A stretch of 64,000 nucleotides of DNA from Eutreptiella sp. 'Long Island Sound 2002' (taxonomy: Eukaryota > Euglenozoa > Euglenophyceae > Eutreptiales > Eutreptiaceae). Numbering within the stretch: position 1 is the first letter of the stretch; every line of letters starts with the position of its first letter. The notes beneath the pieces are model-generated. The model ran no database searches, had not been told where the DNA came from, and saw nothing but the letters and a program-made list of their open reading frames with translations. Where the stretch lies: contig OZ038378.1 of NCBI GenBank assembly GCA_964036045.1, forward strand, positions 22,678,441 to 22,742,440, read 5' to 3'. This document shows, one piece after another, positions 5,631 to 63,714 of this stretch. Both the position numbers and the translations under genes were made by a program.

Positions 5631-7200
5631 GTAAATTTTCGAAAATTGACTGTCAACTATAGTCTATGTATGGTCTTTTCCATGTTGAATGCATTTGGAA
5701 GTGGAATCGTTGTCCTGAAATTTCATACGTTGGTTTTCCTCAGAGGAGTTGCCATAATTGATTGCACTAATATTTGTTACTGTGGAATCAAATCTATCAT
5801 GGGCTTAGTGGAGGGAAAAAAGTAAGGCCATTGAACCAGAAAACACCCCAACAAGGCATCGTGATTTGCACGTCGCGAAGCACCCTAACTGACGCAGTGG
5901 GAGAGACTGAAATCAGGGCTCATTCCCTTTCAAACACGAACCATACACAAATGTTCATTCGTACATACTAATGCACTCCGGCAACAATAGAAGCTTTCAC
6001 CGTGCTCCAACTTTCGCCTGTCCACGATTCGTTGTAAGTCGTTTGTGATGAATGGTGGATAACGGACGTTGATGGGGAGTTTCAGGAAATTTGTGTGCAT
6101 TTTCACGAGTACAATTATTACTTGCAGCCGCACGTGCTAGAGATCACGATTATTGACTTCGACGGCCAAGAAAGCGAACTGGAGGGTCAGTGACATTTGG
6201 AAATCACGCTCACCTTACTCTGATTGTGGTGCACCTCCTGGTTTCACCTACTTGATACTCACATTCAGCAACATACATCAAGAGATCTCATAGCAGGGAG
6301 TCCGTACTACTGTCGTTGTCAACCAAAGACCGTTGCACTAGGGCTTCAGCCACAAACTATCCGACGTTTCGCCACGGCTCTCGTCAACGTGCTGGTCCAA
6401 GAGTAGGCGACAATCACTTCAAATGGCAAATAACTAGCATGTGAGCTAGAAAGCTGCACTTTGTGTTTTCAAGCATGATGGTTGAGTAAAGCCATCCACG
6501 AGCAATTTTGTCACCTGCCTTTTGGTCCACAGCACTAGACGTTAGCTGTTTTTGTCGAGAATGCCGATCTAAGGTTTCACTGGCAGTGGGAGTCAGCCGA
6601 GATCGTTGTTCTAATCCTTTGTTAACCGTGCAAGTCTGTGTTGGTGACTACCCTTGGCCTGGTCAGGAAAGCATTTCGGTTTCTGTGTTTCAGAATGCAC
6701 CTACACCGCAATACGAGGATATATGTACAACATGCGAATGCCGATGTAGTCGGGTTTGAGCTACATAGTTATCGCACCGCCGCCAAAATGTTTCTCACAC
6801 GCCAAAGGCATACATAATCTGTGGCGGTTATGGAACTTCGGGCACGCACCGGACGCATTGGGGACACAGGTGGAGGTCACGGTGTCTCATTCTGCAGGCA
6901 ACTTGAGTAGAAGTTGGGGACACACGGTACTTTTTCTGATAAGCGTGAGAGGGCAACTATGTCGGCGCTCAAGAAACTGAAGGAATCCAAGGGTTCAGTC
7001 CAGTATGCAAAGTCTTAAGCGGCTCAAGTTGCATGGTCAAAAATACTTGCGAACATGGAAATTGGACAGGTTTAGAACGGCAGCGAAAAAGTATTCTTTT
7101 GACTGATTGGGTGAGCGCCTCGTAGGAGATCTTCAAGAAATATATCATTTAAGTGGAGTGACTCAGCCCCCGGGTGTTTCCACAACAACAATTGTTTTAT
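5631..7200. other. No recognisable gene
   Basis: Only short, unrelated open frames occur here, with no domain or repeat that I can name. Confidence 0.4.
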
Positions 7201-7210
7201 GGTGATCTTA

Positions 7211-7510
7211 TGCGCGAGACCTCGCACATAGGGGGATGTTCATGGCAGAATAATGTGTTACTGCACGATACATTAAGCAAGTTGTGGACAAGGAGGAAAA
7301 TACTGTAGGCAGTTACCTAACCTTGTACCCTTATCATGTACCGGCAAACGCGCATGCAAGAATACATATATTTCCATTTTATTCCATAGGGTAATATATA
7401 AATGTATAATTGTTACCGCAGGAACCGCGATTCGATGCGCGAGGCCTCGCGCATAGAATGGTTCGTCGCAAATGATAAATTTTCACCCTCCAATGCGCGA
7501 GGCCTCGCGC
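7211..7510. repeat. Three copies of the GCGCGAGGCCTCGCGC palindrome
   Basis: Copies lie at 7211-7228 (degenerate), 7435-7454 (perfect 20-base palindrome ATGCGCGAGGCCTCGCGCAT) and 7495-7510 (perfect 16-base core). The same core occurs ten times in the 12-kb DNA transposon at 47-59 kb. These three lie just upstream of a fragment homologous to gene Y of that element. In that element gene Y likewise has three copies upstream. Confidence 0.85.
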
Positions 7511-7713
7511 CATGGAGGTGTCCGACAATTTGTACAAATGAAAATGGGCAGATCTACCAACTACAAAGCATGTACATTCCCTTTGAGGTGGCGCTGCTGT
7601 ATGGCCGACCCTATAAATCCCGCAGGCATCGCTAGTTTTCATCCTATGGTCATGGCTGACTTCACGGCTCAACAACGTTCGTAGCGCCGCGCAACTGGGT
7701 ACAAGCAGGTAGC

Positions 7714-8190
7714 ATGAACCATCAGAATGCGGGAGCACCTGACAGTTCCTGTGAACCAAAAATAGTGCGTGCGACAAACGAATTGTCAAGAAGTGGTCGC
7801 GCGAGAAGTGTACCACAGGAAGATGATTACTACATGAGGTTTTTTTCCAATTGCGAAATGCTAGTGATACATTTACAGAAAGTTTGTGACAATGCCATAC
7901 GCAAGGGGTGGGACCTGGAGAAAATAGTTGCAGCGGCATCTGGGATATTCCGCGATTTGTGCTCAGAGTAACCGCCGTACCACACGGCCGAAGAGTTCTG
8001 GGAAGGGCTAAAAAAAACGGCATAAGGGCGTGCGATTACTTCTTACCTTTTTCCTACTACTACACAAAAATGAAAAAACGTGTTGCAACGTTCGAAAAGC
8101 AATCGAGTCAGAGGGAAAGAGATGGGTAATCGTTTCGAAAGAGGAGACTTGGCGACTTTATTCATGGATTAAAGAAGGTCTGTAGGACAG
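7714..8190 (+). pseudogene. Diverged fragment of the gene-Y family (DNA-transposon gene)
   Basis: An 85-codon frame starts at ATG 7714 and ends at TAA 7969-7971. In the same frame after the stop come YHTAEEFWEGLKK and then TAA. In other frames follow an aromatic-rich stretch (CDYFLPFSYYY) and, near 8120-8185, GKRWVIVSKEETWRLYSW. These match the N-terminal part of gene Y at 57.4-57.1 kb in order: AYQTADDLWKGLKQ, then DKRWVRILRQEGWNLYLL. The similarity is clear but low, and nonsense codons and frameshifts break the frame, so this is a decayed relative rather than a recent copy. The three upstream palindromes strengthen the link. I see neither the rest of the gene nor terminal arrays here. The alternative of an intact unrelated 85-residue gene is less likely. 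Confidence 0.55.
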
Positions 8191-28622: not shown

Positions 28623-28690
28623 TGTAGATCGAAGTACAAATCAAGTTGACGGCGTTGCGGCGTCGAAGATTGATCCTCCCCGCCACCTAG

Positions 28691-34715: not shown

Positions 34716-37700
34716 CTAGCTCTGTAGGGACTGGTGGTCTGTGCAAACCACCACCGGCTGCAGTCCGATGTGGCCAGACCACTTCCTGAGCGCACATACA
34801 ATGGCGTATGTCTCCTTCTCCCTCGCGGTCCATGTTCGGCGTTGGCCCTCGGCCAGGATCCTGCTCCAAAACGCCACGGGAACATGAGTCCCGTCGTCCC
34901 GGACTTGCTCGAGGACTGCCCCCACGGCATAGTCCGAAGCGTCTGTCCGTAACACGAATCCCTTGTCCGGGTCCACCAAGAACAGCCCCAACTGCCCCAG
35001 GAGTCGCTCCTTCAGGCGGTTGAACGCATCCTCAGCCTCAGGGGTCCAGGCAAGCTTCTTCTTGCTCCCCTTCCGGCCATCGAACTTGCCCACTTGCAGC
35101 ATCTTGTGCAGCGGCCCCGAGAGTTCTGCATACATCCGGACATAGCCCGAATAGTAGTTGCAGAACCCCATGAAGGATCGGAGTTCGCTGATGGTCTGGG
35201 GCTTCTCCCAGTGGTGCAGGGACGCCAGCTTCCCAGGCATGGGACGGCGTTGCCCGTGACCAACAACGTGACCCGCGAACTCCACTTCCTTCACGAAGAG
35301 TGAGGCTTTGGTGGGCTTGCACACCATGTTGTGCTTGTCCAACTCGCTGAGCACTCGGCGCAGATCCTTCTCATGCGCGTCGATGAGCTCGTCCTCAGTC
35401 ATGTTCTCCGTGCCGGACCCGATGATGATGTCATCCACGAAGGGATCGGCACAGTCCCGGACAGGACCGAGTAGGTCCTCCATCATGCGCTGGAAAGCGG
35501 CGTTGCCATTCTTAGCGCCCATAGGCACCACTTTCCACTGCATGGGCCCCAGCGGCGTCGACATCGCTGTGCAGGGCCTGGAGTCCGGGTGTAGCGGCAT
35601 CTGGTGATAACCATGTTTCAGGTCCAACACCGTGAAGATCCGCTTTTTCTGCTGTTTTTGGAGGATGGAGTCGATCAGGGGAAGCGAGTACGAGTTGTGC
35701 TCGGTCTGCTCGTTCAAACCTCTGTAATCAACCACCAACCTCCACTCGCCCTTCTCCTTCTTGGGTACGATGAAAGCTGGGCTGGCCCACTCACTGTCGG
35801 AGGGTTCGATCCATCCCCGCTCAATGAACTCGGCCAACAGCTTCTTAATGGCCCCGGCCCGATCGCCCTGAAGTTGGTACTCCCGATGACGATAGATCTT
35901 CGGGTTCGGCTTCAGCTTGATCTTCGCTGTACCAAACCTCCCGCGATCTGGAGGGTTCTTCTTGGCGACGCCACTGAACAGCCGCGGATAGGCCTTGATC
36001 AGCCTCTCCTTCAGCTCGGCGACCTTCGGGTTCTCCTGGGCCTCTTCAGCCGCTTGCTTCGGTATAGACACAACCGACCGCACTGCGGTATAGGCCTCTT
36101 CTGGGTCCGATTCCGACTTCTCCTCGTCCGACATGCCGTCTTCATCGTCGTGGGGAGCTCTTCCCACCGATAATCTTCGGAAATTTGCGGCATCGGGCTG
36201 GTGACTGTCGCTATCGGCACCCATTCTTGGAAAATCCCATGTTGGTGGGTCCGACCCAACCGGACCATCGTATTGGTCCGCGATGTGATCCATGACCCTC
36301 GCCACGAACTCGTCCTTCTCGTACTTGCCGGTGACCAACATCTTGTCATCCCACCAATGCGGAGATGTGACCATGGCCCGCCTCTTCTTGGCTGCCACAC
36401 GGTCGTGTATCCCCATCCGCATGTAGTTGACGACGTCGTCGATCTCGGCGTCGGACAGGACGTCAATGCCATCAATAGGCTGATCCGTCCCCTCCTTGGG
36501 CTCAAACATGACCTTCATGGGCACCGCCTCCACCCTACGGATGAATGCTTCATCACCCGTGGGCTGGGCTTGCGCCCCATCCACCAGGAAAGCCTTGGTA
36601 CCCCACGCTTGACCCGGGGAGGGCATTGATACACCCTTGGCGTCGATGAACAACTCCTCCTCTGGCCCGAATGACATCTCGTTCAGGGTGATGGAGTCCA
36701 GCGTCGACTTGAGACCCTCCAGCGGACATGGGGTGGATACTATGCCGGTTATGACCAGGATCCCCTTCGCCCTATCCGCGATGATCTTCTCCACCGTACG
36801 TCTGGTATTGTCCAGGGAGCCATGCCAATACATGGGCCCCCACTCCTTCAAACCCCAATGCCTGTGCCAGGCTGAGTCTCCTCGATGCCAATGCCTCCTA
36901 CACTTCCGCAGAAGTGGGGCATCCCAGGAAGCGAAGACGTCCGTCTCGGGCACTTCAGCTCCCAGCGTCTGAATCATCCTGGCGTACACTTGCGGCGCCA
37001 TTCCATACTCCGTAAGCTGAACTCCACGGTCTCCTCTGGACTTGGCACCCACAGCTTGCACCTCTCGGACGATCCGATCCTCTTCCTCAGCATTCCATTG
37101 GGATGACCCGCACGCATAATCCGTGGACAGCCATGTGAGGCATTCGTCGTCCTCCCGGACCAGCGTTGCGCGATGGGGAAGGGCTCCAATGGCGTTGGCC
37201 ACCATGAAGTCGTACCCCATGATCATATCCCAATCGGTAATGTCGGCCACATAGAAGTTCCCGGATAGAGTGCTTCTCTTCGCCTGATCAGGGCGGTTCA
37301 AGCGCTCCAACGTCCTCAACATGTCCTCAGCAACCTCCTCGATCGACCTCACTCGTCGGTCTTGGCCAGGTCCACCACCATAGCCTCTTCCTCCGCTTTT
37401 TCCTTGGCCTTTGCCTTGGCCTTTTCCCCCGTCTCCGCCCTTCGCCTTCCAGTCGGAAATCCGCTGCTCCTTGGGCTTCTTCTCGGGGTGAGCGGCGAAA
37501 TAGGCCTTCTTGTCCGCCTCATACACCTTGCACTGACGGTGTTCGTGTGCATGGTTATTTCCCTTGCCATAACAGACCCAGCACCCGTCGTGCTGAGACC
37601 TGTACTCCCGGAAGGAGAGCGGTGGGTTCCCGATCCTCCTTGGCTCTTTGCCCTTCTTGGGTCCCACCTGGCTCCATCTGGACCGATCCTGCCCATGGTT

Positions 37701-38204
37701 CTTCACGTTGTGCGCCACAAACGCGAAGAAATGGGCCTCCTCGTGATCCTCCCGGGACCAGTGGTCTTGGCCACTTCCACTACCATCCTCCGCGGAGTTG
37801 GCCGTGTCCTCCTGGATCTCTCGATGATGGCGGTCTTCTCGGTGGCCTCGTTGTCCATGACCATGTCGATCCTGCACGTGGGCCTCGTTCTTCGCATTGA
37901 GCTTCAACTCCACCGTGATGTACTTCACGATCTCGTCAAGGCTCATGCGGGCGAAGATGACTTGCATCCTCAGCGGCTCCCCGCGCCTCCACTCCACGTT
38001 GTTGAGGCGCAGCAACCTTTGCCCCATGGAGTCTCCAAACACCTCCACGTACGCGGCGTTCTTCAGTCCCAACATCCGGTCGGGTTCGCCCAGGTTCCTC
38101 CTGAAGAACTCCATGATACCCGCATGGGTATCCTCCGCCGCCATGATCCTCACCGCCACCCATCTCTTGGCGCGCTTCTTCTCCTCGTCCTCCACTCTCC
38201 TTTT
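34716..38204 (-). pseudogene. Element C Pol: nucleocapsid, protease remnant, methylase-like domain, RT, RNase H
   Basis: In order: a basic region with a Cys/His knuckle (CWVCYGKGNNHAHEHRQC), then FYVADITDWDMIMGYDFM, the C-terminal half of an aspartic protease. I find no D-T/S-G active-site motif before it, so that half may be deleted. Then PETDVFASWDAPLLRKCRR, WGPMYWHG and PSPGQAWGTKAFLVDGA, a domain parallel to the methylase-like domain of element A but with YWHG where NPPF is expected. RT: VVDYRGLNEQTEHNSYSLP, VPMGAKNGNAAFQ, active site PFVDDIIIG. RNase H: LRTDASDYAVGAVL, TAREKETYAIV, TDHQSLQS, then TAG 34716-34718 at a conserved Trp position. It is preceded by Gag in the same frame. Confidence 0.8.
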
Positions 38205-40031
38205 CTAGCTGCCGGGGAGGACGTCCTTCAGGAGGTGGCGGATCTCGCTGGCCTCGTTCCAATCCTCCACCAGCTTGAGGCATCTGCGGTACTTCCGCAG
38301 ATACCGGTTCCACTCCCGGACCCGCAACTCACCGCGGTCCAGCGGCAGTGGAATGGACCACAGGTCCTCCAGCTTCTGATTCGGAGTGTCCACCCGCTCC
38401 TCATCCTCCAACCACTGGAGGCAGGCCTGCTCCGTCCTGATCAGTCCTTCCCGGATCTGATCCCGCAGCTCCTCCTTCAGGTCCTGCGCCAGGCGGTGTG
38501 GGAATGTCCGGCATACCCACTTATCCCGCGGCGCTCCCCGCATCTCGCCGACGACCTCCTCGGCGAAATCCTCCCAATCCAGGATGAAGTCATCCAGATT
38601 GGAGGGGTTACCATCGTAGTAGGGGATTTTGATTCCCCTGAGGTCGTCAATCCTGATGGCGTCTCCGACGTCTCCAGCCACCACTCCACCGAGACGGATA
38701 CCACCTGTGGCCGGGGGGTGTGAGTACACTCCCCGTACATCCCTCTCCTCCATGGAGTGCGGTCCAGTTGGGCCTGAACCCATGGGGTTTGGAATGCGGG
38801 AAGGAGTTGCTCCATCGGCTGTCCATATCCCCGTATTGGGGTCCTTCGCCCACAGGTTTCCGCTTGGATGGCCTCGACCATGTCCGTCGGCGCCTCCCAT
38901 GATTCGCCCCTGCATGGTCTGGTTCTGGATCTCGATCTTCTCTTCCGCATAGACTGCCATATTCGTCGTGAGCGGTACATCCTGGGCGGCATGGGACATC
39001 TGTACCGTCAGGCTCCTCGGGTCCGTGGTCACGTGCCCTCCCCGCATGGACCCAGCCGGTGCCGTGTGTTCCCCGAGCATTGTGGACTCGCTGAACAGGG
39101 GAACATACGGCAGCGCACCCGGGTCAACACGCGGAGGCGCGTATGGTGCCTCTGCAGGGCCGCCCATGGGTTTCTCCATGGCGCTCCTGAGGGTCTTAAC
39201 CCGCTCCACCAGCTCTACCGCGGCCGGCTTTGCCGGGAGCTCCGGACCCGAGGCGAGGGGCTGTCGCTCCTCTAGCCTTCTCAGGCGTCCCGACATGTCC
39301 TCCACTAAGTGGAGGAGGCTATCCACCACTTGCTGCTGTTTCTGCAGGGCCAGCTTCAGATTCTCCCGGTACCGGGCCTGATCCGCTCGCAGCTCCTCCA
39401 TGTGGTTCTCCGCGGCCGACTGGTCGTCCAGGATCCCCGCGACGTCCTCCTCTAGAGCGTCCTTGGCGTTGTCCAGGCGGTCAAGGTGATGCACGATGGC
39501 GTCCATCCCCATCTTTGGGTACTTGCCCATGAGGAAGGACACGTGCTCGCAGTGACACGCAGCGTGCTTTCCGCCGGATTCAGCGCATCCCGCGGTTCCC
39601 GGCACCTCGGACTCATCGCCCATGGGCGTATCGCCTATGGCGTCCGTCTCTGGGCCCGTGTGCCGGGGCACAGGTGCCGTCCGGGCCCTGGCTGGCCTCT
39701 CCAAGCCCTCGGCATCGTGCTTCAGGGCGGGCTCGGGGGCCGTATGCGCCCTGGCGATCGGCGCGGACATCTCCGGCTCCGAAGGTGGCTCGTGGGCTGT
39801 CCGATAGCCCTCGGAGTGCCCCTCGGATTCCCACAGCCTGACCGGGCTGGGGTCCGTGTCCATAGCCCCGGCGTCCCTTGCCGCGGACTTGGGTGACCCG
39901 CGCTTCCGGTAGCGCCGGGCCCGTCCTCCACTGCTGCCTGAATGGCAAGCCTCATCAGAGTCCTCCGCGGCGGAGCGGAGGTTGCATGCCTTTCGGCAGC
40001 GACGCTCACACATGGAGACCAGGTCCTCCAT
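38205..40031 (-). pseudogene. Element C Gag
   Basis: ATG at 40031 (MEDLVSMCERRC) is the first inside the element leader; the frame is open further up but runs into the LTR. 608 codons: a Pro/Ala-rich N-terminus, a coiled coil (ENHMEELRADQARYRENLK, LLHLVEDMSGRLRRLEERQ), and a capsid-type helical region (IKIPYYDGNPSNLDDFILD, WLEDEERVDTPNQKLEDLW). It ends at TAG 38205-38207 after KDVLPGS. Downstream the same frame continues into nucleocapsid and pol. The TAG may be a nonsense mutation of CAG or a readthrough signal of the murine-leukaemia-virus type. It is short of the expected zinc knuckle, so mutation is likelier. Confidence 0.75.
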
Positions 40032-40239
40032 GTCACGTCCTCCTCTTCCCGAGTGTCGTTCTTCTCTTCGGGCTTCAACTTCCGGAGTTCGCCATGCTCT
40101 TGAACGTCTCGGTCCTTCTATGGCTCCAATCTCCGGCGTGGTCTCCACCGAGTCCACAATACGCACCCGGGGCGTACTTGGGCAGGGCTCATAAGGGCCC
40201 AAGTCCCCGGGTCGGCGGTTGGTAGGGGCAGCAGGTAAG

Positions 40240-40250
40240 CCTCTGCTACA
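40240..40250 (-). promoter_or_regulatory. Element C primer-binding site (initiator tRNA-Met type)
   Basis: The minus strand just inside the 5' LTR reads TGTAGCAGAGG. This matches the complement of an initiator tRNA-Met 3' end (TGGTAGCAGAGG) except for one missing G. Confidence 0.5.
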
Positions 40251-40251
40251 A

Positions 40252-42606
40252 TAAAGAAGGTCCCTACCAGGACCGGCCCCCGCTGTGCCCCTTTCGCCTG
40301 TAACCCCTGCTGATTTACTCCGGATCAACGATTGCATTCCTCAATTTCCAGGGTCCAAATCCAAAAATATAGAAATAAAATCCTCCTTCAACCCTGAAAC
40401 AGCAACCAGGTCCCGCAAATACAACAATAACCCAATTCACAATCCAAATCAGGCTGCGGGCTTTCGTTCAGCACACCGGTATTCCCACGGTGGCGGGCAT
40501 GTACAAGAATTGCACCAAGGAAGAAAGCCCTGAAATTGGCATATGAACACAAATAAAGCAAAGTTGGGGAAAGAGGTAAACATACACATTCACAGCCATA
40601 AACCCCTCATTCCCTGGACTCAAGACCTTCCCTTGACTCACCAACATATTGCCCTGAACCCGGTCAAATGAGATGGCTGAATGCCATGTGTCACAAGTCA
40701 CTACATAAACCCCAAAAATGTGTTCACTCCCAAGCCTCTAATTCCTAGCCCAATAGGAGAGGTGGCGTGTCATGGCCTAGAGTGGCACTCAGGACCATGC
40801 CCTACCGTGACATAAACTTGGTTGGACTTGGAGTCGAATGGGCTTAGAGAAATGACCTATGGGTTTGAACTCATAACATGTCAAAAAACTGCCAATTCAC
40901 ACCATATTGGCCATATATCAAAAATATGCTCAAAATTGAAGTTACTACTTATCCGAAGGCCCAAAGCATGCATGGAATCGAAGTCTAGTATTCATGGAGG
41001 ATAGAGACCGAAAGCCAATGCCCATGTACATCCCCACTTTACCCTCGAAACCCCTTCGGATATGGGCGCCACGCACTGCCCAAGTCAGCCCATGATTTTG
41101 AGACCAATTCTTGTGATCCTTCGTGCGCCAAGCCAAATGGAGTACACGATCCGGCATATGGTGGTGTTCAACTCCAAAGCATATGCCAACATATGAACAA
41201 TATACCATGGTTCGACTCTCCATAGGCTTCTTGCTGTAAGCTGACCAGGTGAGTACACAAAACGCAAAAATGAGCAAAAATTGAGGTCAAAAACATGAAA
41301 AAATGACCAAATACAAAGTTGTCATGATAGTATATCTCTATGCTCACCCATGATATCCGCTCATGATTCAATACACAAATGATTGGTACCATTTGCGAAC
41401 AATTCCCCCACTTGGATCCCCAATCGGGCGCATGGAGATACCTTTGCCACTAATATCTACATGCCCCATGAAAATGGGAGTGCACCCATGGATCTCTTTG
41501 TCAAACATACCATGAGCAATACATACGCGGTAGACTTGGTCTAGCGCTTTGAATTCCACAATTGGGACATGGGCAAAACCCTTGTCACGTATGGCTCCCC
41601 ATCTCTTCGGCCACACGAAGATATATAACATGGGCGTGAGCATATCAAGACATATACCATGCATATAAAACATACCCTCAAATGTGGCTCCCACCATGAT
41701 ATGCCATGTCCCTCCATTGGCATAACTTCACGTTAAAAATACGTAGGAACCCAAGGAAAGTTGCCATGCAACCCCAATACTCATGCGGTACACTCGAAAG
41801 TCACAATAAATGTTCGGTTGCACGGTCCAAGAGTTATATATCACTTTATACCCTCTTGACCATTATCCCTTGCTATATCGGGCATGTGTACACACCAAAG
41901 GCGTTTGATGCTTCCTAAATTAAGTTGAGACCCAGGCCGTTCCAACCCAACCTTTCTTATTCTCTTTCCTCACACTCGCTCGTAGATATGGCTCTTCAAA
42001 GTGGTCCCACGATTCGCTTTTGTTTCCCTTATATCTCCAAGTCAAATGGGTGGCAAGTATAAGGGAAACCTGATTCGGGCATAGGGAAAAGAGTACGACC
42101 ACTCGAAGAAGTCCAAATCAAGTGCGGCGATGTCGAAGTCGAAAATCCGATTTCGACATCGCGAAAAATTCTGATTGAAATTTCGAGTGCTTATCTAGAG
42201 AATTGCGGATGCAACGAACCCTTTGCTGATGAAATCTGACCCTTCAACGGAATATCCGCCGAAATATCTGGAAATAACAGTTAACCAATCGGTTAACGCA
42301 AAATCGCGAGCCAACTGACAGTCGCCGATACATTGACCATCAGAACGAAAGGCTGAAAAATTACGGAAACATTATGATAATAAAACCCTGTTGATTCCTG
42401 ATATTCCGATATATAAATCTCCGCTGGCGGCGCCTCGGTTCTGAATATGGCCGCTCATAGCCGGAATGGCCAAACCTATCACACTATCACATCGGGTTAG
42501 ATCAGGTGGATGGGAGAGTATGATATCAGCCAATGGCGGCTTGCCGGCACATAGATACACACCCCAAGTGACCCCAAGATGGCCACGGGGGTCCGAACCG
42601 GCTTCA
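40252..42606 (-). repeat. Element C, 5' LTR (2.36 kb)
   Basis: Same length as the 3' LTR (constant offset of 10,201 bases). It should hold the promoter of the element. No TATA box is assigned. Confidence 0.9.
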
Positions 42607-47689: not shown

Positions 47690-47890
47690 GCCCCTTGAGT
47701 TGGGGTTAGGGATTCACAATCCACGCGTTGTTGCGGGGCCCCTTGAGGTGGGGTTAGGGACTCGCAATTCACGCTTTGTTGTGTGGCCCCTACAGTTGGG
47801 GTTAGGGACTCGTAGTCCGCGCTTTGTGGCGTGGCCCCCTGAGTTGGGGTTAGGGACTCGCAATGCACGTAGTCATGTTGCCATGTGTGC
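47690..47890. repeat. 48-bp tandem repeat, four units
   Basis: GGGGTTAGGGA recurs at 47702, 47750, 47798 and 47846, each within a 48-bp unit that also holds CGC(G/T)TTGTNGCGNGGCCCC-like sequence. It lies 5' of gene Z. GGTTAGGG looks telomere-like but the unit is not a telomere repeat. Confidence 0.85.
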
Positions 47891-50559: not shown

Positions 50560-51222
50560 TTTGGGGATGCATGTGGTCATATCAGAGAGTTCATCGCAGG
50601 GGATCAGAGGTACTATCCGATTGTTGTAAAGTAGGGTACTAAGCCACGTTGGCCAGAGCCCATGTGCCCAGATTCATCTGCTCGGAGAACGTGGGTCTTA
50701 GTTCGCTGGGGGACGTATGCTGGGAGTTCATCGCAAAGGATCACAGGTACTATCCGAATGTTGTAAAGTAGGGTACTGAGCTACCTTGGCCAGAGCCCAT
50801 GTGCACAGATTCATCTGCTCAGAGAACAGGGGTCTTCGTTCGCTGGGGGACGTATGCAGATAGTTCATCGCAAAGGATCACAGGTACTATCTGAATGTTA
50901 TGAAGTAGGATACTCAGCCACCTTGGCCAGAGCCCATGTGCACAGATTCATCTGCTCAGAGAACAGGGGTCTTCCTTCACTTGGGGACCTATCCAGAGAG
51001 TTCATCGCAAAGGATCACAGGTACTATCTGAATTTTGTAAAGTAGGATACTCAGCCACCTTGGCCAGAGCCCACGTGCACAGATTCATCTGCTCAGAGAA
51101 CAGGGGTCTTCCTTCACTGGGAGACCTATGTAGAGAGGTCATTTGAACGGATCATACAAAATGTCTGAATTTTGTGAAGCAGGGTACTCAGCCACTTTGG
51201 CCAGAGCCCAGGGGCACAATTT
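50560..51222. repeat. 137-bp tandem repeat, about 4.8 units
   Basis: GTTCATCGCA recurs at 50589, 50726, 50863 and 51000, and as GTCATTTGAACGG at 51138, giving a 137-138 base period. Units share GATCACAGGTACTATC, GGCCAGAGCCCATGTG and TCTGCTC(A/G)GAGAAC. The array begins just after the gene Z stop and runs directly into a second Tudor-like segment. Confidence 0.9.
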
Positions 51223-51530: not shown

Positions 51531-51987
51531 GACAGCCAGAGTTATCAACTCCTTATAACCCTGCATCCCACCACAAAGTTTTGTGCATTTTCTGCGGCTT
51601 TCGCAGTCTGCCCAGTCAGTCCCAAGTTCTAGATTCCTTGCTTAGACTTAGCCCACGCAAACTGCACCCCTTTTTGGAAGAGAAAAACCCAAAAAACGAC
51701 AGCCCCAAAAACTATTCTTTTTGGACATTTGCAGCACACATGACCCAGATACCACCAAAAAAAATACAATTTTACCCAATTTGCGGCTTTTTTCCACTTT
51801 TTTTTTATTAAAATAACCTATTATTTTGTCTGATTTGAAGGGTGTGTTTTACAAATCTTCTGGTTTTTGTATTTCAAAAACCAACCGGTGCGTGCCTTTT
51901 CGGGAGCTCATTTTCAAAAATGACATTCTGCGGGTCTCCAGTTGCACCTATGTTTGTCCTGCGAAATAAATTGCTTTTTTGTGTACC

Positions 51988-52013
51988 TGAGTGCGCGAGG
52001 CCTCGCGCACTCA
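51988..52013. repeat. Element palindrome, perfect over 26 bp
   Basis: GTGCGCGAGGCCTCGCGCAC at 51991-52010, extended by TGA on the left and TCA on the right. It lies about 200 bases past the gene X stop codon. Confidence 0.95.
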
Positions 52014-52149
52014 AGGTCACGGAAACAATTGTGTACAGAAGGCAACAAAACCAGGACAGGAAGTGTACAACCTACAAACACTGAAATAAAAGCTCGGCAA
52101 AAATGTACAAGCCCTTAAGGGCATATAATTGCATTCACGTCGAAAGCGA

Positions 52150-52169
52150 GTGCGGGAGGCCTCGCGCAC
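52150..52169. repeat. Element palindrome, one mismatch
   Basis: GTGCGGGAGGCCTCGCGCAC, 44 bases past the gene X stop codon, so probably in its 3' UTR. Confidence 0.9.
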
Positions 52170-52212
52170 ACATGACTGCAAAAAGAGGCGAAACACTTGG
52201 GTTAATGGTGAC

Positions 52213-55167
52213 TTATTTCTTCTTCGGTCCAGCAACCTTAGCCAACCTGGAACCCAGGCTTCTTGCCACCGCACTTGTCCCACTTGGGGAGGCAACGGTA
52301 CCACGAGACGGCTGGGCACCAGAACGTGAGGGCGGCTTGAACTCTGCACTAGCACTGGCAGCAGTCTTCGCTTTCTTCTTCGGCTGTTCCTTACCAGATT
52401 CGGGGCTTGCATCGAAGTGAGCGGCGGGTGACCGCTTGCGCTTCTGCCCGGTCTCCAGTACTTGCTCCGGATCCTCTTCTTCCTCCTCCTCGTCGGCATC
52501 GTCGTCGTCTGATTCCGCGGGCTTATCCGATTCCTTCTCTTTTCCTTTTGCCTGCTTCTTGCTACTCGAGGGGGTTCCCTTTCCGGCTGTACCCTGAGTT
52601 GGTATAACTTTGGCAGTCTTCTTCACCTTGGCTTGCATTGGCAAGGTAGGTGCTGGCGCAACAGGCTCAGTGTCGTCAGCGGGGGCCTCAGTCACGACAT
52701 TTTCATGGACGGCTTCTGCAGCCAGCACCTTCTGGTGCCCTTCATATCCTCGGCTGCTGTCCAAAACCCACAGTGGAATACCACGCAGAAGCCACTCTTC
52801 TTGAGTATCCCAAGCTGCAGCCGTTGCTCCCTGCTCCGTCTGATCAGCCTCCAACATGTACCGCATGATGATCGCATGCTGCAGAGCACCTCCAACGGCA
52901 TTGGCAAGGTCCTTTTGCCTGATCGCTGACACAGCCAGAAACCCCACTTTAGTCCTCCCCGTCTCGTCCGACATCGCAATCTTTGCGGCCATGGCAGGCG
53001 TGTCGTCCACAACAACCACTGCATCAGCATGGCAACTGCCCAAAAGATATTTGTCCAGGTACCACAGCACGTGAATCAGAGGCATGAAACCACCGAGGTT
53101 CTTGTTCTGCATCTCTTCGAAATGTCCAGCGGAATACGTCACATAGTTCGGCAACTGTAAATGTGATGAAGGAATACGAACAACGGAGGCAGCAGTGCGC
53201 GAGGCCTCGCGCACACAACGGCATCGTAACCGGCAAAAGAAGCAGATATACCTGCTTATCCCAGCGACTCGTTGTTCCGATCCACATACAGTGCTCGTCG
53301 AACTGATACATATTGCTGGTCACGGGACCCGATAACCAAGAGTATACCGACAACCGGACATGGTAGAATGGCACTGTGGTTGGATCCTTGTTATTCTCCA
53401 TACGCCACAGCCTCTGCATGTCGCGGCCAATACGGTGCACAACATCAGCCTCGCCATAGAAAATGACGTCCTTCCCCAGCATCATCACATCGAACAGCCA
53501 CTTCGGAACAAATCCTGCAGAGTCATATTCAACCAAAACGTCAGCGTTGATGACCCACAACGGGTACTGCAGATCCCAGAAACGGGCTGGCGGTGTCTCT
53601 TCAATATCCTCAATACGGCATGCCGTCAAAGCGAATGTGCTCCCTTGCTCGTCCTGCTTGGAGACATTGATCACATCGCCAGTACTCAGCTGTGTCTGTG
53701 GCGGTGCCAATGATGGTGCCTCAGTCTTCCTTTGCAATTGTTTCCGCACGGCCAGCGTCTGCGGTAATGGAGGTGCGCCCTTGTCCCCAGTCCGCCACAG
53801 AGGTGCACTGGTCAACGTCTTCCATTTTGGCCACGGCGACCGAAACTTCGTACTTTTTGCGTCCTCCCAATAACCCCGATTTCCGAGCCCAATTTTCAGT
53901 TGCGCCGTGCCCAGTGCTGCGACTTCTGCTCGGATCTTCGCATCGGCAGCTGTACGGATGTGAAAAAGGTGGTTGAGTGCGCGAGTCCTCGCGCACTGAA
54001 GCTGCGACACTGACGCATACCTGCGGTCTGGTTGACATACTGCTTATTGTCCGGATGGTCAAGATGGAAAATAACCCATTGTTCCGTAATCAGCGCGTCA
54101 ATGTAGTTCTGGATGGAGCGTAAGGTCGAGTCCTTCAGGTTCATGTGCGCACAGAGTTTCTGCAATAAGCTCGGTAGATGCAGCCCCTCCAGCTTCTTGA
54201 AGGTATTCCTTCCAACTTCCTCTTTCCTGCTCTTACTCTCGAGGTTCTTCATACCAGTAACCGCCTCACGGCCGCAGTAATACGCCAGGGAGAAGATGTC
54301 CCTCCAGTTCTTGAATGTCGAGTCCTGCGAGGGAAAACAGTGTCATGGAGTGCGCAAGGCCTCGCGCACTATAACCGTGCGATACACGAATACATACTGT
54401 GTGTCCTGCTTCCTCCAAAGCCTCAGGTGCAAGAAACGCAGAGTTGACGGCAGCCTGGACAACAGCAATCTTGAACCGCTCGAAATCTTGTGGTTCTTTT
54501 TCCCGCTTCTGGTCCTCAATGTACAACAACATGTTGTCCAGCGCCTCGGACAGCGGAATCCACGTCACAGACTGGCTGCCAGTTTGTTGCAATCCTGCAA
54601 CCTTGGACCGGATCCTCCAAGGCGTTTCGTACTTCAGAATGTCAACGTAGCAAAACTCCTGCCAGTCCTCCAATTCTTTGCCTTCTGCAAGACGCAGTTC
54701 CTGAATCTTTCTGCATGTTTCTGTGCCATGTTGACCATTCAGAACGTAAAGTGAGCCATCTCCAAAGCAAATCATGTACCAAAGCAAAGAGAAGAAACGT
54801 CTTCGATCGAACGCGAAGCGAGTCATACCCCTATCCTCCCAGGCCGTTACGCGCAACAGTCCGGGTGGTGGCAGTGCTTCGTATCCCGTCACTTTCCTGG
54901 CAACGTCGTCACAGTTGATAGATCGGATCTGTCCGCGCTCCTTGGTCTTGTCAATTTTCAAATCAGTAATCTTACCTTCACGGCTTTACCATTCTCCTGC
55001 CGCAGCCACTGTTGCATGTCGACTGTGAGCTTCATCTCCGGTATTGGCTTCTTCTCACCCTTCTTTTTGCGTCCTTTCTTCGGCGTGTCCCCTTGGTCGG
55101 TCCCTGGTGACGACTCCATGGCCTCTGCGTCTGGTGCTGGACGTTCTGGCGACCCTGGTTCACTCAT
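52213..55167 (-). CDS. Element D gene X: four-exon nuclear-type protein with a possible ParB/DGQHR-like region
   Basis: Exons 55167-54398, 54324-54021, 53949-53252 and 53154-52213 join in frame through introns of 73, 71 and 97 bp, all GTAT...CAG. Summed exon length is one base short of a multiple of three. A single-base deletion near 54.97-54.98 kb (VKV then KITDLKIDKTKERG in another frame) explains it, so this copy is probably broken or misassembled there. Length about 904 residues. The N-terminus is basic (KKGRKKKGEKK). FGDGSLYVLNGQHGTETCR near residue 143 resembles the NGQHR/DGQHR motif of ParB-like folds. Residues about 500-730 are unrecognised. The C-terminal about 180 residues are acidic then Lys-rich (DDDDADEEEEEEDPEQ, GQKRKRSP, KKKAK) with likely nuclear signals. 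Each intron holds one palindrome. The function is unknown; a DNA-binding or accessory role is inferred. Confidence 0.65.
53155..53251 (-). other. Gene X intron 3 (97 bp) with palindrome
   Basis: GTATATCTGC...TTTACAG; it joins RWDKQ to LPNYVTY in phase 0. Perfect GTGCGCGAGGCCTCGCGCAC at 53195-53214. Confidence 0.85.
53950..54020 (-). other. Gene X intron 2 (71 bp) with palindrome
   Basis: GTATGCGTCA...CGTACAG; it joins VNQTA to ADAKIRAEV in phase 1. The palindrome at 53977-53996 has one central mismatch (GAGTCCTC on the plus strand). Confidence 0.85.
54325..54397 (-). other. Gene X intron 1 (73 bp) with palindrome
   Basis: GTATGTATTC...CTCGCAG; it joins EEAGHT to DSTFKNWRDIF in phase 0. The palindrome at 54350-54369 has one mismatch. 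Confidence 0.85.
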
Positions 55168-55216
55168 GATGCCAAAAAATACCTGAAAAGGGCAAATGCC
55201 ATGACATGAAACACGG

Positions 55217-57415
55217 TCATTTGAACTCTGAAATCAGTTGAAACGGTATTTTGCAGGTCGTTTTTGCAAATCTGTTCCACAACCGTCTTTGTTGTGACTT
55301 ATTCCACAGCACTTAGCGAACTACTCAGTGCGCGAGGCCTCGCGCACTCACATCGCATTGCATACCTGTTTTTCGTAACGTTTAGTGCGCGAGGCCTCGC
55401 GCACTGCGGGTGTCAGTTACCGCAAGCGTTGCCGCACGTTGCGTGTTGCTGCTTCCTGTCTGTCGGCATGCATATCTGTTCTCCGCCCCACAACAGCATC
55501 CAGTTTCCATTTCAGTTGGTTGGTGGGATTTGTTTTCTGGTCAATGAGGGCATCTAGTACGCTGTGACCAAGTAGCCGGTAGTGGTCGAAACCAAGGGGT
55601 TGTGTAGGTGAGGGTGGAAAATCTTGGTAACCTCCGCGGCCACGAAGTTGCAACGGTGCTGACTCTGTCCGACTCCCATTCCGGATAGGCCATGCAAATC
55701 CGGTCTGTCGCCAAAAATCTTGTCAGTCGTTGTCGCACCCTGTGTACCAGGTTCTTGGGAACGTTTTGCACCCCCACGCGTTTGCCACCAGGACCAACCT
55801 TTAGTAACAAGTAATGGTTTTCCACCTCCTCAACAGTAACAGAACCCGTGTTTCTCGCCTTGTCCCGCACCAGCTTGCTCAACATCCCTTCTCCAAACTT
55901 TTCTGAGTGTGCCTGACCGGGCAGGTCCTGGTGCCACTTGCTGTTGTACAACAATGTGCACATGATTGTGCGTTCGTACTTCAGTACGGTGTCTCAAGGT
56001 CCTCGACGCAGCCTCCGCAACAGACACAAACTCAACTGCAACACCTCCTGAGCTCGTGACCCTGTACCGTTGCTCTCCCCCGACCAGTTGCATTCCCGTA
56101 CCACGTGGCCCAAGTACAACAACAACGGGCACCATTCGGACAACAAATGCAAGACTGCGTTTGCCACTGCTGCCTTGTTGGCATGCGCAGTGTCACGACC
56201 ACTGATCGCGGTTGCAGCTTGAGCCTTGCGCCGATACGGGCGTAGTATTCGGGGTGTGGCAAGCATCAGCGCAGCAATAATTTTTTCCATACCTATCAGT
56301 TTGGGGTATGATAGTATGGTTGAACCAGGTCGTAGCAGACCTTTCCGTAGGTAGGTTAGAATAGGCCAAAACACCCGAAAAGTATGAGTAACAACGAACT
56401 TGTAGGCATGCCAGACACCGTAAACTACAGGCACATAACGCAGGTACGCACGCATGTTCCATCGTTGGTTCTTGGCACCATACAACAACTGTAGTATCCT
56501 GTAGTGTATGTTTTCGTCAACCAACAGCGGTAGAACACTGTTTGTCTGTTGTGCTACGTCCTTTGCAAAGTGTAACAGGTTTAATAGACCAACACCACCA
56601 GTTATCTTTTCTTTTGACACGGCAAACGGGCGCCACACCGGTGCCTGCACAGTCCTTGCATCCCTCATCACATCCAACGGTGCTGTCAAGTTTCCAGTGT
56701 CTGGTACACACCCATCTGCATGCCCCAGATCACGCAAAGTCTGGGGGATTCTTCGTTCACGCTGTTGCAGAGCCCTTGCGACTGTCGTTATCCGTGCTGC
56801 TAGGTCCTCAATGGCTGGATGTCCTGCCCAATACGTGGGCCTCTGTTTCAGTTGAAGTACTGCCATTGCACTACAGTTTTGCGACCGGTCACTTTCGTCT
56901 GGGTGTGTCGTGTATTGTGCCCGGTACCAGTTGTCTATGCACAGCACACAACACGACGAAAGCACCAGTGATCACGTTGCTTTAAGTGCTGCTCCTGCCT
57001 GTCCGTCCACTGTTTCTGCGGCAGCGTCTGCTTGCCCAGGTCGTACTTTTGTTCGTCTTTCTGTTTGCGTTAGGTACCCTGTTGTGTTTCCCGGTTTTTT
57101 CCTGTTTGGTACTGCCCGTTGACGCATCAACAAGTACAAGTTCCAGCCCTCCTGTCGCAAAATGCGCACCCAGCGCTTGTCCTCCTGCCTTTTAGCTGCT
57201 GGTAAACCGTGGCGCGTTCTTTTGTTGAACCTGAGTCGCTGTGCGAATGATAACACCAGTTGCGCCGCCAGGTCGTTTTGTTTCAGTCCTTTCCACAGGT
57301 CGTCTGCTGTTTGGTATGCTGGTTCTGCTGCGCATGCCTCTCGTAGTGCTGCTGCTCCTTTGCTTACTTCTGCTATCAGCACATGCGTTACGGATTTTCT
57401 GGCTCGAAGTGGCAT
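55217..57415 (-). pseudogene. Element D gene Y: possible transposase
   Basis: One frame carries MPLRARKSVTHVLI (57415), AYQTADDLWKGLKQ, DKRWVRILRQEGWNLYLL, CVLCIDNWYRAQYTTHPDE, LLVDENIHYRILQLLYG, VYGVWHAYKFVVTHTF and MCTLLYNSKWHQDLPGQ. It is interrupted by TGA at 56972-56974 and 55994-55996, then a shift near 55.64 kb to LQLRGRGGYQDFPP, ending RNVRQRL. Splicing across 55420-55272 would add about 18 residues to TGA 55217-55219, 50 bases before the gene X start. Length about 680 residues. Asp in CIDNWY and LVDENIHY and a later Glu could be a DDE triad, but I cannot place the family; KDZ-type transposases are worth testing. A relative lies at 7.7-8.2 kb. The true N-terminus upstream of 57415 is unresolved. 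Confidence 0.5.
55272..55420 (-). other. Gene Y last intron: two abutting intron units, one palindrome each
   Basis: Unit 1, 55420-55366: GTAACTGACA...AAAAACAG (55 bp), palindrome 55385-55404. Unit 2, 55365-55272: GTATGCAATG...GGAACAG (94 bp), palindrome 55328-55347. They meet at CAG|GTATGC with no exon between, a recursive-splice-site arrangement. Both palindromes are perfect. The downstream exon assignment is tentative. Confidence 0.6.
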
Positions 57416-58287
57416 TTTGCGTTTTTCTCTGTGGAATCAAATTTGCGCACATATTTTGGTTATCGTTTCCCACAGCGATCTTTAAAAAAAGTGTGTTTGA
57501 AAACATCTGGCCTTTTCCTGTCGTCATTTCTGGTGCGCGTGCTGCCGCCGCAAATTGTATTTGGTGTCTGCGTGCGCTCCGTTCCCGGTAACCGAAAACT
57601 GTTTTTGCAACCACAATTTCCTGTTCTGTTTCCGTCTTTAAACCCAGTTGGAAAAAAAACCATATCTATCGGGCAGCGAAGGCTACGGCCGCTATTAGAA
57701 CGGGACACGTCTGCCATTGAGTGGCTGTTGGAAAAAAGCAAGTCATTCCCCTGATCCCCTGAAAAATATGACGAAGGTTACCGATGTATAATCGACTGTC
57801 ACAGGTGGTAGTCGTGAAAGGGAAAGAAAATACCGGCGTAGCCTGACCTGCCTGCTTTTTCATTTTCTTCCGTTGTTTGAGTGCGCGAGGCCTCGCGCAC
57901 TAATTGTTTCCGGGGGGCAATGTTCTGTACCGTGTTATATCTGACCAACACTGTGTCTACACACACGTACACCGGAAAAAATCAACTGTGTTCGTCTGTC
58001 TGGTATTGTACGTGCAATTGTACGCGTCATATCCATTCCGTAAATTAATACATAACGTGACCTGAGTGCGCGAGGCCTCGCACATTCCGGATGCCGAAAT
58101 TTGTATTTCATTTTCACTTTACAATACATGTGTTTCCCCTAACATGGGAAGTCCGACAGTCATACACTTCCAATGCTCCTTGGGCAACACAATCCTACTT
58201 TTAATACCGTTTGGGAGCTGCGTATTTCCGCAAACGCCAGTCCTTACGGGTTTTTAGGTTTCGTGATAAACTCTACTTTGAATATCT
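57416..58287 (-). other. Gene Y upstream region with palindromes at 57881-57900 and 58066-58083
   Basis: 57881-57900 is a perfect copy. 58066-58083 lacks two bases of the right arm. A CAG acceptor follows each closely on the minus strand (AAAAAGCAG near 57.86 kb, CACTCAG at 58.06 kb), so they may be 5' introns of gene Y, but I cannot fix donors or exons. Minus-strand ATG frames near 57741 and 58129 are short and unrecognised. Confidence 0.4.
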
Positions 58288-58313
58288 TGAGTGCGCGAGG
58301 CCTCGCGCACTCA
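58288..58313. repeat. Element palindrome, perfect over 26 bp
   Basis: GTGCGCGAGGCCTCGCGCAC at 58291-58310 with TGA/TCA extensions, identical to the 26-bp palindrome at 51988-52013. It lies in the non-coding right part of element D. Confidence 0.95.
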
Positions 58314-58435
58314 GAACGCCAGAGAAATGTAAAAAACGTCACATTGAGGAACGCGGAGTTGCACAACACTAAAAAAGCAATTTATTTCACTACGCCCAAA
58401 ATCACGTTCATCAAACATCCAAAAAAATATTTTTT

Positions 58436-58745
58436 TTGCCCTGTTGCGAACCGGTCCTTTTCTGCGTGTTCGACGCGCAAAACAGGGTGCAGTTTGCGTG
58501 GGCTAAGTTAGACTCTGAGAAGTGGTATTCAAGCACTACTCAGTCGGTGCACAAGTTTGCCCATAATTGCATGCTCAAGTGTTGCTCTTTCCAAATGTCC
58601 TCATATGATGGGTCAACATCGGCCGACCAGGGTGCACACAGGGAGGGATGCTGGTTCTGTATTTGTTTGGGTCATGTCCAAGAATCCATGGCACTCCAGC
58701 CCTCGTCCACAACGAAGGCGTCTTGTGCATCAGTTGCACAGTGAC
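58436..58745 (+). pseudogene. Possible coding remnant near the element D right end
   Basis: A 102-codon plus-strand frame contains VLFCVFDAQNRVQFAWAKL and SEKWYSSTTQSVHKFAHNC, which read like protein-coding sequence. It has no domain I recognise and becomes low quality after 58.6 kb. It could be an old gene fragment or chance. Confidence 0.2.
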
Positions 58746-62601: not shown

Positions 62602-63714
62602 CTAATGCTTCTTTGGTGTGCCTGCTTTACCCTTCCCCTTGGACTTCGCAGTCAGCTCGCCCAGCTGCTCAATCCGCTCCTGTGTGGTTTTGCGCTGGCG
62701 CCCGGTGATGGCGCTGGCCAACTCCCGGAAGTTCGTGAACTGCCGATTGACGATGCGCACCACCACTTTGCCAGCGGGCTGATCCTGTTTGGTCAGCTCT
62801 ATGGTCTTCGAGACGCCGGCAGTGTTCTGCTGCAGCTCCGCTTCCAAGGCCTTGTCCACCAGGATGCTGCCCGTGCCAATGAGGCCCGACTCGTCCTTGC
62901 TGTCCTTGTTCTCCACCACAAACCTGATCTCGTTGATCTTGCGGACCTTCACGACCAGCTCGTCGTTCCAGACAGGGCTGGTGCCCTTCCGCGGCTGCGT
63001 CTTCCACACGTGCTCGCCGCCGGCGTACACACTCAGCGTGGACTCGATGGAATTGAACATGGATTCCTCAACATTCAGGTCCGAGGCATACTCCACGACA
63101 AGCTTCAGCCCTCGCAGGCCATGTAGATCGGGGTGAAGGATGTCGTCGAACATCTCATCCAACTGACTGCACACCTCGAACAGATTCCCGACCTTCTGGT
63201 CCAGCTTCTTGATCCGCGTCACCAGCATCCGCGTGCCCACGTGCATGGCCTCCTCTTTCCGTCGCATCATGATGTCCTGCAGCAGGTCGATGCCCTTCTG
63301 CTCGGGTGGGGGCAACTGATTGGCTTCCTCCGCCACCTTCAGGGGCACGATCCTGTACAGCAGCTTGGGCTGGTCCAGGAACGGGTACTCGAGGTGCACG
63401 TGCTCGATGAACCCCTTCTTGCCCCAGTACGACAGCAGCTCCACGCAGTCCTTCCTTGGCCGACTGGCGTAGATGTTCTTCTGCACCCAATCTGTCGCCT
63501 CAGTCCCGGTAAACACCTCCGTGTACTTCCGCATCAGCACTCGCTTCGACTGGAGCAGGCCCCCTTGGCTTACATCTTGGTGCATCCGCATGAAGGACTG
63601 CTGCACGTCAACGTACGGGTCCGGGTTCATCATCTGCAGCATCCTCTCATCGCCCCCGAGGAGCTCCGCCGAGTCCCGGCGTTCCTCGTCAGAATCCCCG
63701 TCCGCGTCCCAGAC
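62602..63714 (-). CDS. DEP and C2 domain protein, last exon
   Basis: The exon starts at the acceptor CCCATAG| before GTC (63712-63714); an in-frame TAG lies directly upstream, so an intron boundary is required. It ends at TAG 62602-62604, about 370 codons. Acidic start (VWDADGDSDEERRDSAELL), then a DEP domain (LLQSKRVLMRKYTEVFTGTE, ATDWVQKN, LSYWGKKGFIEHV, LLYRIV), often a membrane or GPCR-signalling targeting module. A helical linker with likely coiled coil (RTRMLVTRIKKLDQKVGNL-like) follows. Next is a C2 domain (LKLVVEYASDLNVEES, STLSVYAGGEHVWKTQ, SPVWNDELVVKV, LIGTGSILVDKAL), then a Lys-rich tail (KSKGKGKAGTPKKH). Few of the usual C2 Asp ligands are seen, so Ca2+ binding is doubtful. It has no stops or shifts and looks like the one intact host gene here. 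Confidence 0.8.
   Translation of the reverse strand, partial: VWDADGDSDEERRDSAELLGGDERMLQMMNPDPYVDVQQSFMRMHQDVSQGGLLQSKRVLMRKYTEVFTGTEATDWVQKNIYASRPRKDCVELLSYWGKKGFIEHVHLEYPFLDQPKLLYRIVPLKVAEEANQLPPPEQKGIDLLQDIMMRRKEEAMHVGTRMLVTRIKKLDQKVGNLFEVCSQLDEMFDDILHPDLHGLRGLKLVVEYASDLNVEESMFNSIESTLSVYAGGEHVWKTQPRKGTSPVWNDELVVKVRKINEIRFVVENKDSKDESGLIGTGSILVDKALEAELQQNTAGVSKTIELTKQDQPAGKVVVRIVNRQFTNFRELASAITGRQRKTTQERIEQLGELTAKSKGKGKAGTPKKH

What the first reader, a model, noticed from the sequence alone, without database searches (positions are those of the whole stretch)
51988..58313. A 20-26 bp perfect palindrome repeated ten times within one transposon
GTGCGCGAGGCCTCGCGCAC occurs exactly at 51991, 53195, 55328, 55385, 57881 and 58291, and with 1-2 changes at 52150, 53977, 54350 and 58066. 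A random 20-mer should not recur at all. All copies avoid coding exons. Two are extended to identical 26-bp palindromes (TGA...TCA). Three more relatives lie at 7211, 7435 and 7495 beside a homologous gene fragment. Conservation in neutral sequence of a decayed element suggests function: a dimeric protein-binding site, a cruciform or RNA hairpin, or a mobile unit. I know of no described element with this signature.
Basis: seen in the sequence. Interest (0 to 1): 0.88.

Follow-up and report, generated by a model that had tools for sequence, protein, structure and literature searches.

The report
Palindromic control sites of a transposon
A jumping-gene family in a large eukaryotic genome carries the same 20-letter palindrome about ten times per copy, in the introns and gaps between genes and at set distances from its ends, most likely as landing sites for one of its own proteins.

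Summary
The ten copies lie in one 6,861-bp DNA transposon (51647-58507) with a perfect 23-bp TIR and 5-bp TSD. All lie outside exons; each gene-1 intron has one at its centre. In the 2.28-Gb genome the 20-mer (<=2 mismatches) occurs 13,901 times, against 20 for the reversed control. Of 50 exact sites listed on C1 (0-21.9 Mb), 47 lie just inside a family TIR and three in a fragment of the element. Five of six two-ended long copies read have all ten sites; the sixth, read in part, lost one in a deletion. A second family, with a ~45% identical transposase and otherwise unmatched noncoding DNA, keeps the 18-bp core, also in the homologous intron. The shorter end-to-first-site distance is 196-199 bp in both families and in non-autonomous N1 (206 in a family-2 derivative); the longer one is 340-345 bp in family 1 and N1, 370-376 in family-2 derivatives. 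Gene 2 models as a DDE transposase (hAT/P-like). Best reading: a duplex, dimer-type binding site for an element-encoded protein. Which protein binds, and whether for synapsis, transcription or anti-silencing, is not shown. RNA-hairpin and self-mobile readings fit worse.

The parts
51647..58507 (.). family-1 DNA transposon, 6,861 bp, 5-bp TSD TTAGA
   Evidence: perfect 23-bp TIRs and flanks; same structure in other copies
51647..51669 (+). left TIR CTTAGCCCACGCAAACTGCACCC
   Evidence: 1,230 + 1,211 genome matches at <=2 mismatches, control 1 and 0
58485..58507 (-). right TIR
52213..55167 (-). gene 1: unknown protein, coding exons separated by three introns, acidic/lysine-rich tail; one frameshift near 54977
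   Evidence: spliced frame open from just after the frameshift to the stop; 12 homologues at E<=1; no Pfam match reaching the curated cut-off, best CDC45 at E 0.0023 on the acidic tail; no NCBIfam or PHROGs match at E<=1 for the pieces given
54325..54397 (-). gene 1 intron 1, 73 bp, palindrome central (28/25)
53950..54020 (-). gene 1 intron 2, 71 bp, palindrome central (24/27)
53155..53251 (-). gene 1 intron 3, 97 bp, palindrome central (37/40)
55420..57415 (-). gene 2: DDE-type transposase candidate (653 aa in P0133); two in-frame TGA and a frameshift near 55620 in this copy
51991..52010 (.). palindrome 1, 344 bp from left end (26-bp form 51988-52013)
52150..52169 (.). palindrome 2, downstream of gene 1 stop
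53195..53214 (.). palindrome 3, intron 3
53977..53996 (.). palindrome 4, intron 2 (AGCCC centre in six of six other copies read: L022, L026, L027, L028, L033, L034)
54350..54369 (.). palindrome 5, intron 1
55328..55347 (.). palindrome 6, between gene 2 and gene 1
55385..55404 (.). palindrome 7, just after gene 2 stop
57881..57900 (.). palindrome 8, upstream of gene 2
58066..58085 (.). palindrome 9, upstream of gene 2 (two changes here)
58291..58310 (.). palindrome 10, 197 bp from right end (26-bp form 58288-58313)
7014..7037 (+). TIR of a truncated family-2 element
7210..7229 (.). family-2 palindrome, 196 bp from that end
7435..7454 (.). family-2 palindrome ATGCGCGAGGCCTCGCGCAT
7493..7513 (.). 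family-2 palindrome with one inserted base
7897..8173 (+). fragment of family-2 gene 2 (61-63% to P0136, 33-37% to P0133)

Best explanation
The palindrome is a cis-acting, double-stranded DNA binding site for a homodimeric protein that the element itself encodes (the gene-2 transposase or the gene-1 protein). The outermost sites, ~197 bp from one end and ~344 bp from the other in family 1, help the protein recognise and pair the two ends; the other sites, in the introns and noncoding gaps, let the same protein coat or control the whole element (transcription, chromatin state or self-regulation). SHOWN: positions, association with the family, conservation of the core across two families, spacing of the short end, retention in gene-less relatives, transposase-like fold of gene 2. 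INFERRED: that a protein binds, that it is dimeric and element-encoded, and the split between end-pairing and internal roles.
For: The same ten sites in 5 of 6 two-ended long copies read (window, L026, L027, L028, L033; the sixth, L022/L023, was read in part and lost one site in a deletion). Family 2, whose transposase is ~45% identical and about 1.1 changes per column away in the tree, keeps the 18-bp core; blastn at E<=1e-5 finds no other match between the family-1 element and the family-2 loci L035 and L036. The core is also central in the homologous intron 3 (L037:1191-1260). Short-end spacing: 197-198 bp (family 1), 199 (N1), 196 and 196 (family 2, window and L037); 197 and 197 in L040 and L041 by coordinates; 206 in the derivative L035. 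Spacer sequences match over little more than the TIR in standard blastn. L030, L031 (N1) and L035 have no tblastn match to genes 1 or 2 yet keep 3-4 sites. Letters that an RNA hairpin would leave in its loop are about as conserved as the arms: positions 9, 11, 12 changed in 1, 3, 1 of 81 sites. Sites vary half as much as other noncoding DNA (13 of 200 vs 26.6 expected, P 0.0019, four copies).
Against: No binding was measured. Position 10 (centre) varies in 12 of 81 sites, 10 of them C, an old state at particular sites. Single sites can be lost: L023 lacks site 10, and in the fragment L032 one of four expected sites is badly changed. Within family 2 the outer pair is not clearly symmetric: 20 of 28 sites, or 13 of 21 after dropping exact A..T sites from loci selected by that query, 11.1 expected. 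The 81 sites come from related copies (three are the window's family-2 sites) and are not independent. The long-end spacing is not the same in family 2 (370-376 bp, derivatives only). A more permissive alignment found 64.5% identity over 186 columns between an N1 end and the family-1 left end, so part of the 344/345 agreement may be descent. The gene-1 model is unusable (pLDDT 38), so no DNA-binding domain was identified there.
Confidence: 0.7

Rival explanations
1. RNA hairpin: the palindrome acts in the transcript (splicing of short introns, export, stability), holding splice sites together.
For: Central in four of four introns seen (28/25, 24/27, 37/40, 27/23; a-posteriori product 2.6e-4 under a uniform placement model); predicted 9-bp stem, -14.8 kcal/mol alone, and introns 1 and 2 fold better than shuffles (z -2.24, -1.63).
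Against: Gene-less L030, L031 and L035 keep sites; putative loop letters are conserved; intron 3 folds no better than shuffles (z -0.39); sites also lie outside introns.
Confidence: 0.12
2. Binding site of a host factor (transcription factor, insulator or CpG-reading protein) that the element exploits.
For: Palindromic, four CpGs per strand; cluster of sites upstream of gene 2.
Against: Sites go with the element family: 47 of 50 listed exact sites in 21.9 Mb just inside a TIR and three in an element fragment, none in 202 kb sampled; a set distance to the TIR is not expected for a host promoter factor.
Confidence: 0.12
3. Self-mobile short palindromic repeat that inserts into noncoding DNA, as proposed for Volvox organelles.
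For: Short palindrome in introns and intergenic DNA only, like Volvox (passages of PMC2670323).
Against: Same places in long copies, homologous places in family 2, not found outside the families in the samples, no shared flanks beyond the extended palindrome seen by eye.
Confidence: 0.03
4. Element-wide anti-silencing site (VANC-like): the gene-1 protein binds the sites to strip host silencing marks.
For: Motif spread over noncoding regions and repeated within one element, as reported for VANDAL (abstract and passages of PMC10398659); accessory gene 1 beside the transposase.
Against: Set spacing to the ends and retention in non-autonomous elements point to transposition; gene 1 has no match reaching a curated cut-off.
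Confidence: 0.25

Closest known systems
P element and zebrafish THAP9 transposons (TIR plus subterminal inverted repeats)
   Different: P elements have 8-bp TSDs and 11-12-bp subterminal repeats; here 5-bp TSDs, a 20-26-bp palindrome and eight further internal copies.
VANDAL transposons and VANC proteins (Arabidopsis)
   Same: Short motif repeated through noncoding regions of one element family (abstract and passages of PMC10398659).
   Different: VANC targets form tandem repeats that diverge quickly between families; here single dispersed palindromes with a core kept across two families.
hAT (Hermes) and Transib/RAG transposases
   Different: No Pfam match at E<=0.1; hAT TSD is 8 bp (recalled); TIR begins CTTAG.
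Galileo THAP-binding sites
   Same: Several transposase-domain sites inside the element, away from the tip (abstract and passages of PMC3688188).
   Different: Those sites are in long TIRs; no palindrome or intron sites are mentioned in the passages seen.
Volvox organelle palindromic repeats
   Same: Short palindromes largely confined to introns and intergenic DNA (abstract and passages of PMC2670323).
   Different: Organelle-wide, many classes, spreading; here set places in one nuclear transposon group.

Membership tests
cut-and-paste DNA transposon | inverted termini | tested here: met
   23-bp TIR, 1,230 + 1,211 matches genome-wide
cut-and-paste DNA transposon | target-site duplication | tested here: met
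   5 bp exact in 7 of 8 two-ended elements with both flanks read (TTAGA, TCAAC, TAAGT, AAGGA twice, CAGAA, ACTTA); L033 matches 4 of 5
cut-and-paste DNA transposon | DDE/RNase H-like transposase | tested here: met
   gene 2 model pLDDT 86.8; nearest chains are Hermes and P element, then Transib and RAG1; but Foldseek alone gave no match at E<=0.001
hAT superfamily | 8-bp TSD (recalled) | tested here: not met
   5 bp
hAT superfamily | hAT sequence domain | tested here: inconclusive
   no Pfam match at E<=0.1, fold similar
P superfamily | 8-bp TSD | tested here: not met
   5 bp; 8 bp for P per PMC7776569
P superfamily | THAP domain | tested here: inconclusive
   no Pfam match for P0133 at E<=0.1
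Transib | 5-bp TSD (recalled) | tested here: met
Transib | TIR beginning CACWRTG (recalled) | tested here: not met
   CTTAG in both families
VANDAL/VANC-type anti-silencing | motif in noncoding regions of one family | tested here: met
VANDAL/VANC-type anti-silencing | tandem-repeat organisation | tested here: not met
   sites are dispersed singly
VANDAL/VANC-type anti-silencing | encoded protein removes methylation | not testable with these tools
   needs expression in cells
introner / mobile intron unit | whole introns homologous to each other | tested here: not met
   the introns share only splice ends and the palindrome

The most novel reading that the evidence does not exclude
An undescribed transposase superfamily (hAT/P/Transib-like fold, 5-bp TSD, CTTAG ends) with an element-wide palindrome code: one dimeric element protein occupies ten sites at set geometry (one end ~197 bp, the other ~344 bp in family 1 and N1, differing by about one nucleosome length, 147 bp) and uses introns as dedicated holders of its binding sites, coupling end-pairing to control of the element's own chromatin or expression.
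Probability: 0.22. Interest if true: 0.82.

Novelty: new variant of a known kind. Interest (0 to 1): 0.64.

Why it matters
Transposons are known to carry short binding sites near their ends, but a 20-bp palindrome kept in the introns and gaps of an element, at a set distance from the ends, across families whose other noncoding DNA no longer matches, is a clean and testable case of an element marking itself from end to end. It gives a ready substrate for asking whether the sites serve synapsis, self-regulation or escape from silencing, and why introns are kept as their holders.

Tried and rejected
Searches without yield: palindrome in viral contigs; gene 2 in viral contigs and genome contigs; element in phages; Rfam at gathering scores and tRNAs on the window; PDB by sequence for P0111 (one match, E 0.41) and gene 1 (none at E<=1); the 16-bp core in the 5.39 million open papers (0). 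Literature searches gave comparators; in the listings I saw no description of this element, and subscription journals are mostly not covered.

Rejected: chance; self-mobile palindrome; an intron-only function. A suspicion that gene 1 holds a ParB-like fold (GQHG motif, recalled resemblance) could not be tested: the model has pLDDT 38 and was not searched. No sequence match to a known superfamily was found for gene 2; its first ~120 residues are barely tested. The intended genome-wide counts of T..A and mixed outer pairs did not complete, so I used 28 sites from eight family-2 places, which did not support symmetric covariation of the outer pair inside family 2. Read-through peptides in homologous proteins agree with conserved positions (core 104 of 129 residues identical, other noncoding 582 of 810) but add little.
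Full report
Observation. One search confirms the coordinates to within two bases: six exact copies, four with 1-2 changes, and relatives near 7.2-7.5 kb; none expected in shuffled sequence. The two outermost copies share 29 bp in inverted orientation.

The element. Perfect 23-bp TIRs lie at 51647-51669 and 58485-58507, flanked by TTAGA on both sides. Two genes run on the minus strand. Gene 1 (52213-55167) has three introns of 73, 71 and 97 bp; removing them gives one open frame from just after a one-base frameshift to the stop. Each intron has one palindrome, with arms that differ by 3 nt (28/25, 24/27, 37/40). Gene 2 (about 55420-57415) has 193 homologues at E<=1; of the 120 listed, 119 are on ENA contigs of 81 kb or more. 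The window copy has two in-frame TGA codons and a frameshift near 55620. Gene 2 has no Pfam match; gene-1 pieces have only matches below Pfam's cut-offs, the best CDC45 at E 0.0023 on the acidic tail.

Genome-wide. The window is at C1:22678441-22742440 of a 2.28-Gb assembly. The 20-mer at <=2 mismatches has 13,901 sites against 20 for the reversed control; this count includes family-2 forms with a changed outer pair. The TIR has 1,230 + 1,211 matches, control 1 and 0. Of the 50 exact palindromes listed on C1:0-21.9 Mb (a capped list), 47 lie within 7 kb on the inner side of a listed TIR, a zone that covers 0.54% of the stretch; the other three are in L032, a fragment of the element. By eye the 50 sites form 15 clusters; I fetched 11 of them, and all 11 are elements or fragments of the family. 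Twenty-one stretches taken without regard to the palindrome (202 kb) have none at <=4 mismatches. The 33 TIR pairs that I formed from the capped listing comprise 12 of 1,161-1,214 bp, 15 of 6,820-6,861 bp and six of other lengths.

Copies. Five of six two-ended long copies (window, L026, L027, L028, L033) have exactly ten sites at corresponding places. The sixth (L022 and L023, read in part) keeps seven of the eight sites in the parts read and has lost site 10 in a small deletion. The partial copies L034 and L029 keep the seven and two sites of the parts they have; L032 keeps three of four, the fourth being badly changed. L026 and L027 have different TSDs and differ at 1 of 4,410 coding positions compared, so the family moved recently. 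In four copies 13 of 200 palindrome positions vary, against 26.6 expected from other noncoding 20-mers (P 0.0019).

Non-autonomous family N1. L025, L030 and the one-ended L031 are ~1.2-kb elements with the same TIR, 5-bp TSDs in the two-ended ones, and three palindromes. L030 and L031 have no tblastn match to genes 1 or 2; L025 was compared with the element by DNA only.

Family 2. ATGCGCGAGGCCTCGCGCAT occurs 610 times exactly. Seven of seven places fetched from that search (L035, L036/L037, L038-L042) and the window place at 7014 have a family-2 TIR, CTTAGGCGGCTCAAGTTGCATGGT, with up to two mismatches or one insertion. L035 has the TSD ACTTA. Family-2 transposases (P0136-P0138) are ~45% identical to family 1 and lie about 1.1 changes per column away. 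In L037 the third intron of gene 1 (1191-1260, 70 bp) again has the palindrome near its centre, 27/23, with T..A in place of G..C outside. Palindromes also follow the stop codons in both families: P0196 shows one just after gene 2 and L037 has two after gene 1, one of them with three changes.

Geometry. From the end to the first site: 197-198 and 340-344 bp in family 1; 199 and 344-345 in N1; 196 in the window's family-2 copy and in L037; 206 and 376 in the non-autonomous L035. From the coordinates, L040 and L041 give 197, and L038, L039, L042 give 370-375. So the short end agrees between families; the long end agrees between family 1 and N1 but is longer in family-2 derivatives. Spacers match in the first ~30 bp and little else between families and N1 with standard blastn; permissive scoring found a 64.5% match over 186 columns between one N1 end and the family-1 left end, so common descent may explain part of it. 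The difference between the two ends, 147 and 146 bp in family 1 and N1 but 170 in L035, equals a nucleosome core in the first two; this may be coincidence.

DNA or RNA. Gene-less elements keep the sites, and letters 9, 11 and 12, which a hairpin would leave unpaired, are nearly invariant (1, 3 and 1 changes in 81 sites; position 10 has 12). This favours recognition as a duplex. The central placement in introns, and the better-than-shuffled folding of introns 1 and 2, are the best arguments for an RNA role, but short introns leave little room once splice signals are allowed for.

Limits. No protein-DNA contact was tested. The 81 sites are from related copies and include the window's three family-2 sites. 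Inside family 2 the outer pair is A or T in all 28 sites read, but symmetry is not clearly above expectation (20 of 28; 13 of 21 vs 11.1); the symmetry claim rests on the 18-bp core. The gene-1 model was unusable.

Verdict. A real, family-wide palindrome of a recently mobile DNA transposon, best explained as the cis-acting binding site of an element-encoded dimer. The kind (internal and subterminal transposon sites) is known; I found this layout, length and intron use in none of the papers listed, of which I saw passages of four and only listings of the rest.

Noticed in passing
window 7014-8173: Truncated family-2 relative of the element: TIR, three palindromes and a gene-2 fragment; no right TIR found in the window.
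   Followed up: yes
window 50583-51218: 137-bp tandem repeat, 4.6 copies, just outside the left end of the element.
   Followed up: no
window 16800-19898, 22604-28640, 32799-40340: Long open frames; the first matches reverse transcriptase, RNase H and integrase models, the others look like gypsy-type retroelements by eye.
   Followed up: partly
window 62602-63714 (-): Likely host gene with DEP and C2 domains.
   Followed up: partly
window 47690-47869: 48-bp tandem repeat, 3.8 copies.
   Followed up: no
L035 294-2002: Non-autonomous family-2 element inserted in what looks by eye like a retroelement gag gene; its first palindrome lies inside a 56-bp near-perfect inverted repeat.
   Followed up: partly
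L025 about 1415-2015: In the N1 element a stretch of about 100 bp that ends in a palindrome is present twice in diverged form (read by eye): sites can multiply by local duplication.
   Followed up: no
L016: 10-kb stretch rich in long GCGCGC runs, unlike the other sampled stretches.
   Followed up: no
P0139-P0143, P0177-P0208: Distant gene-2 relatives, many on contigs of a few kb from other sources: the transposase family seems wider than this genome.
   Followed up: partly
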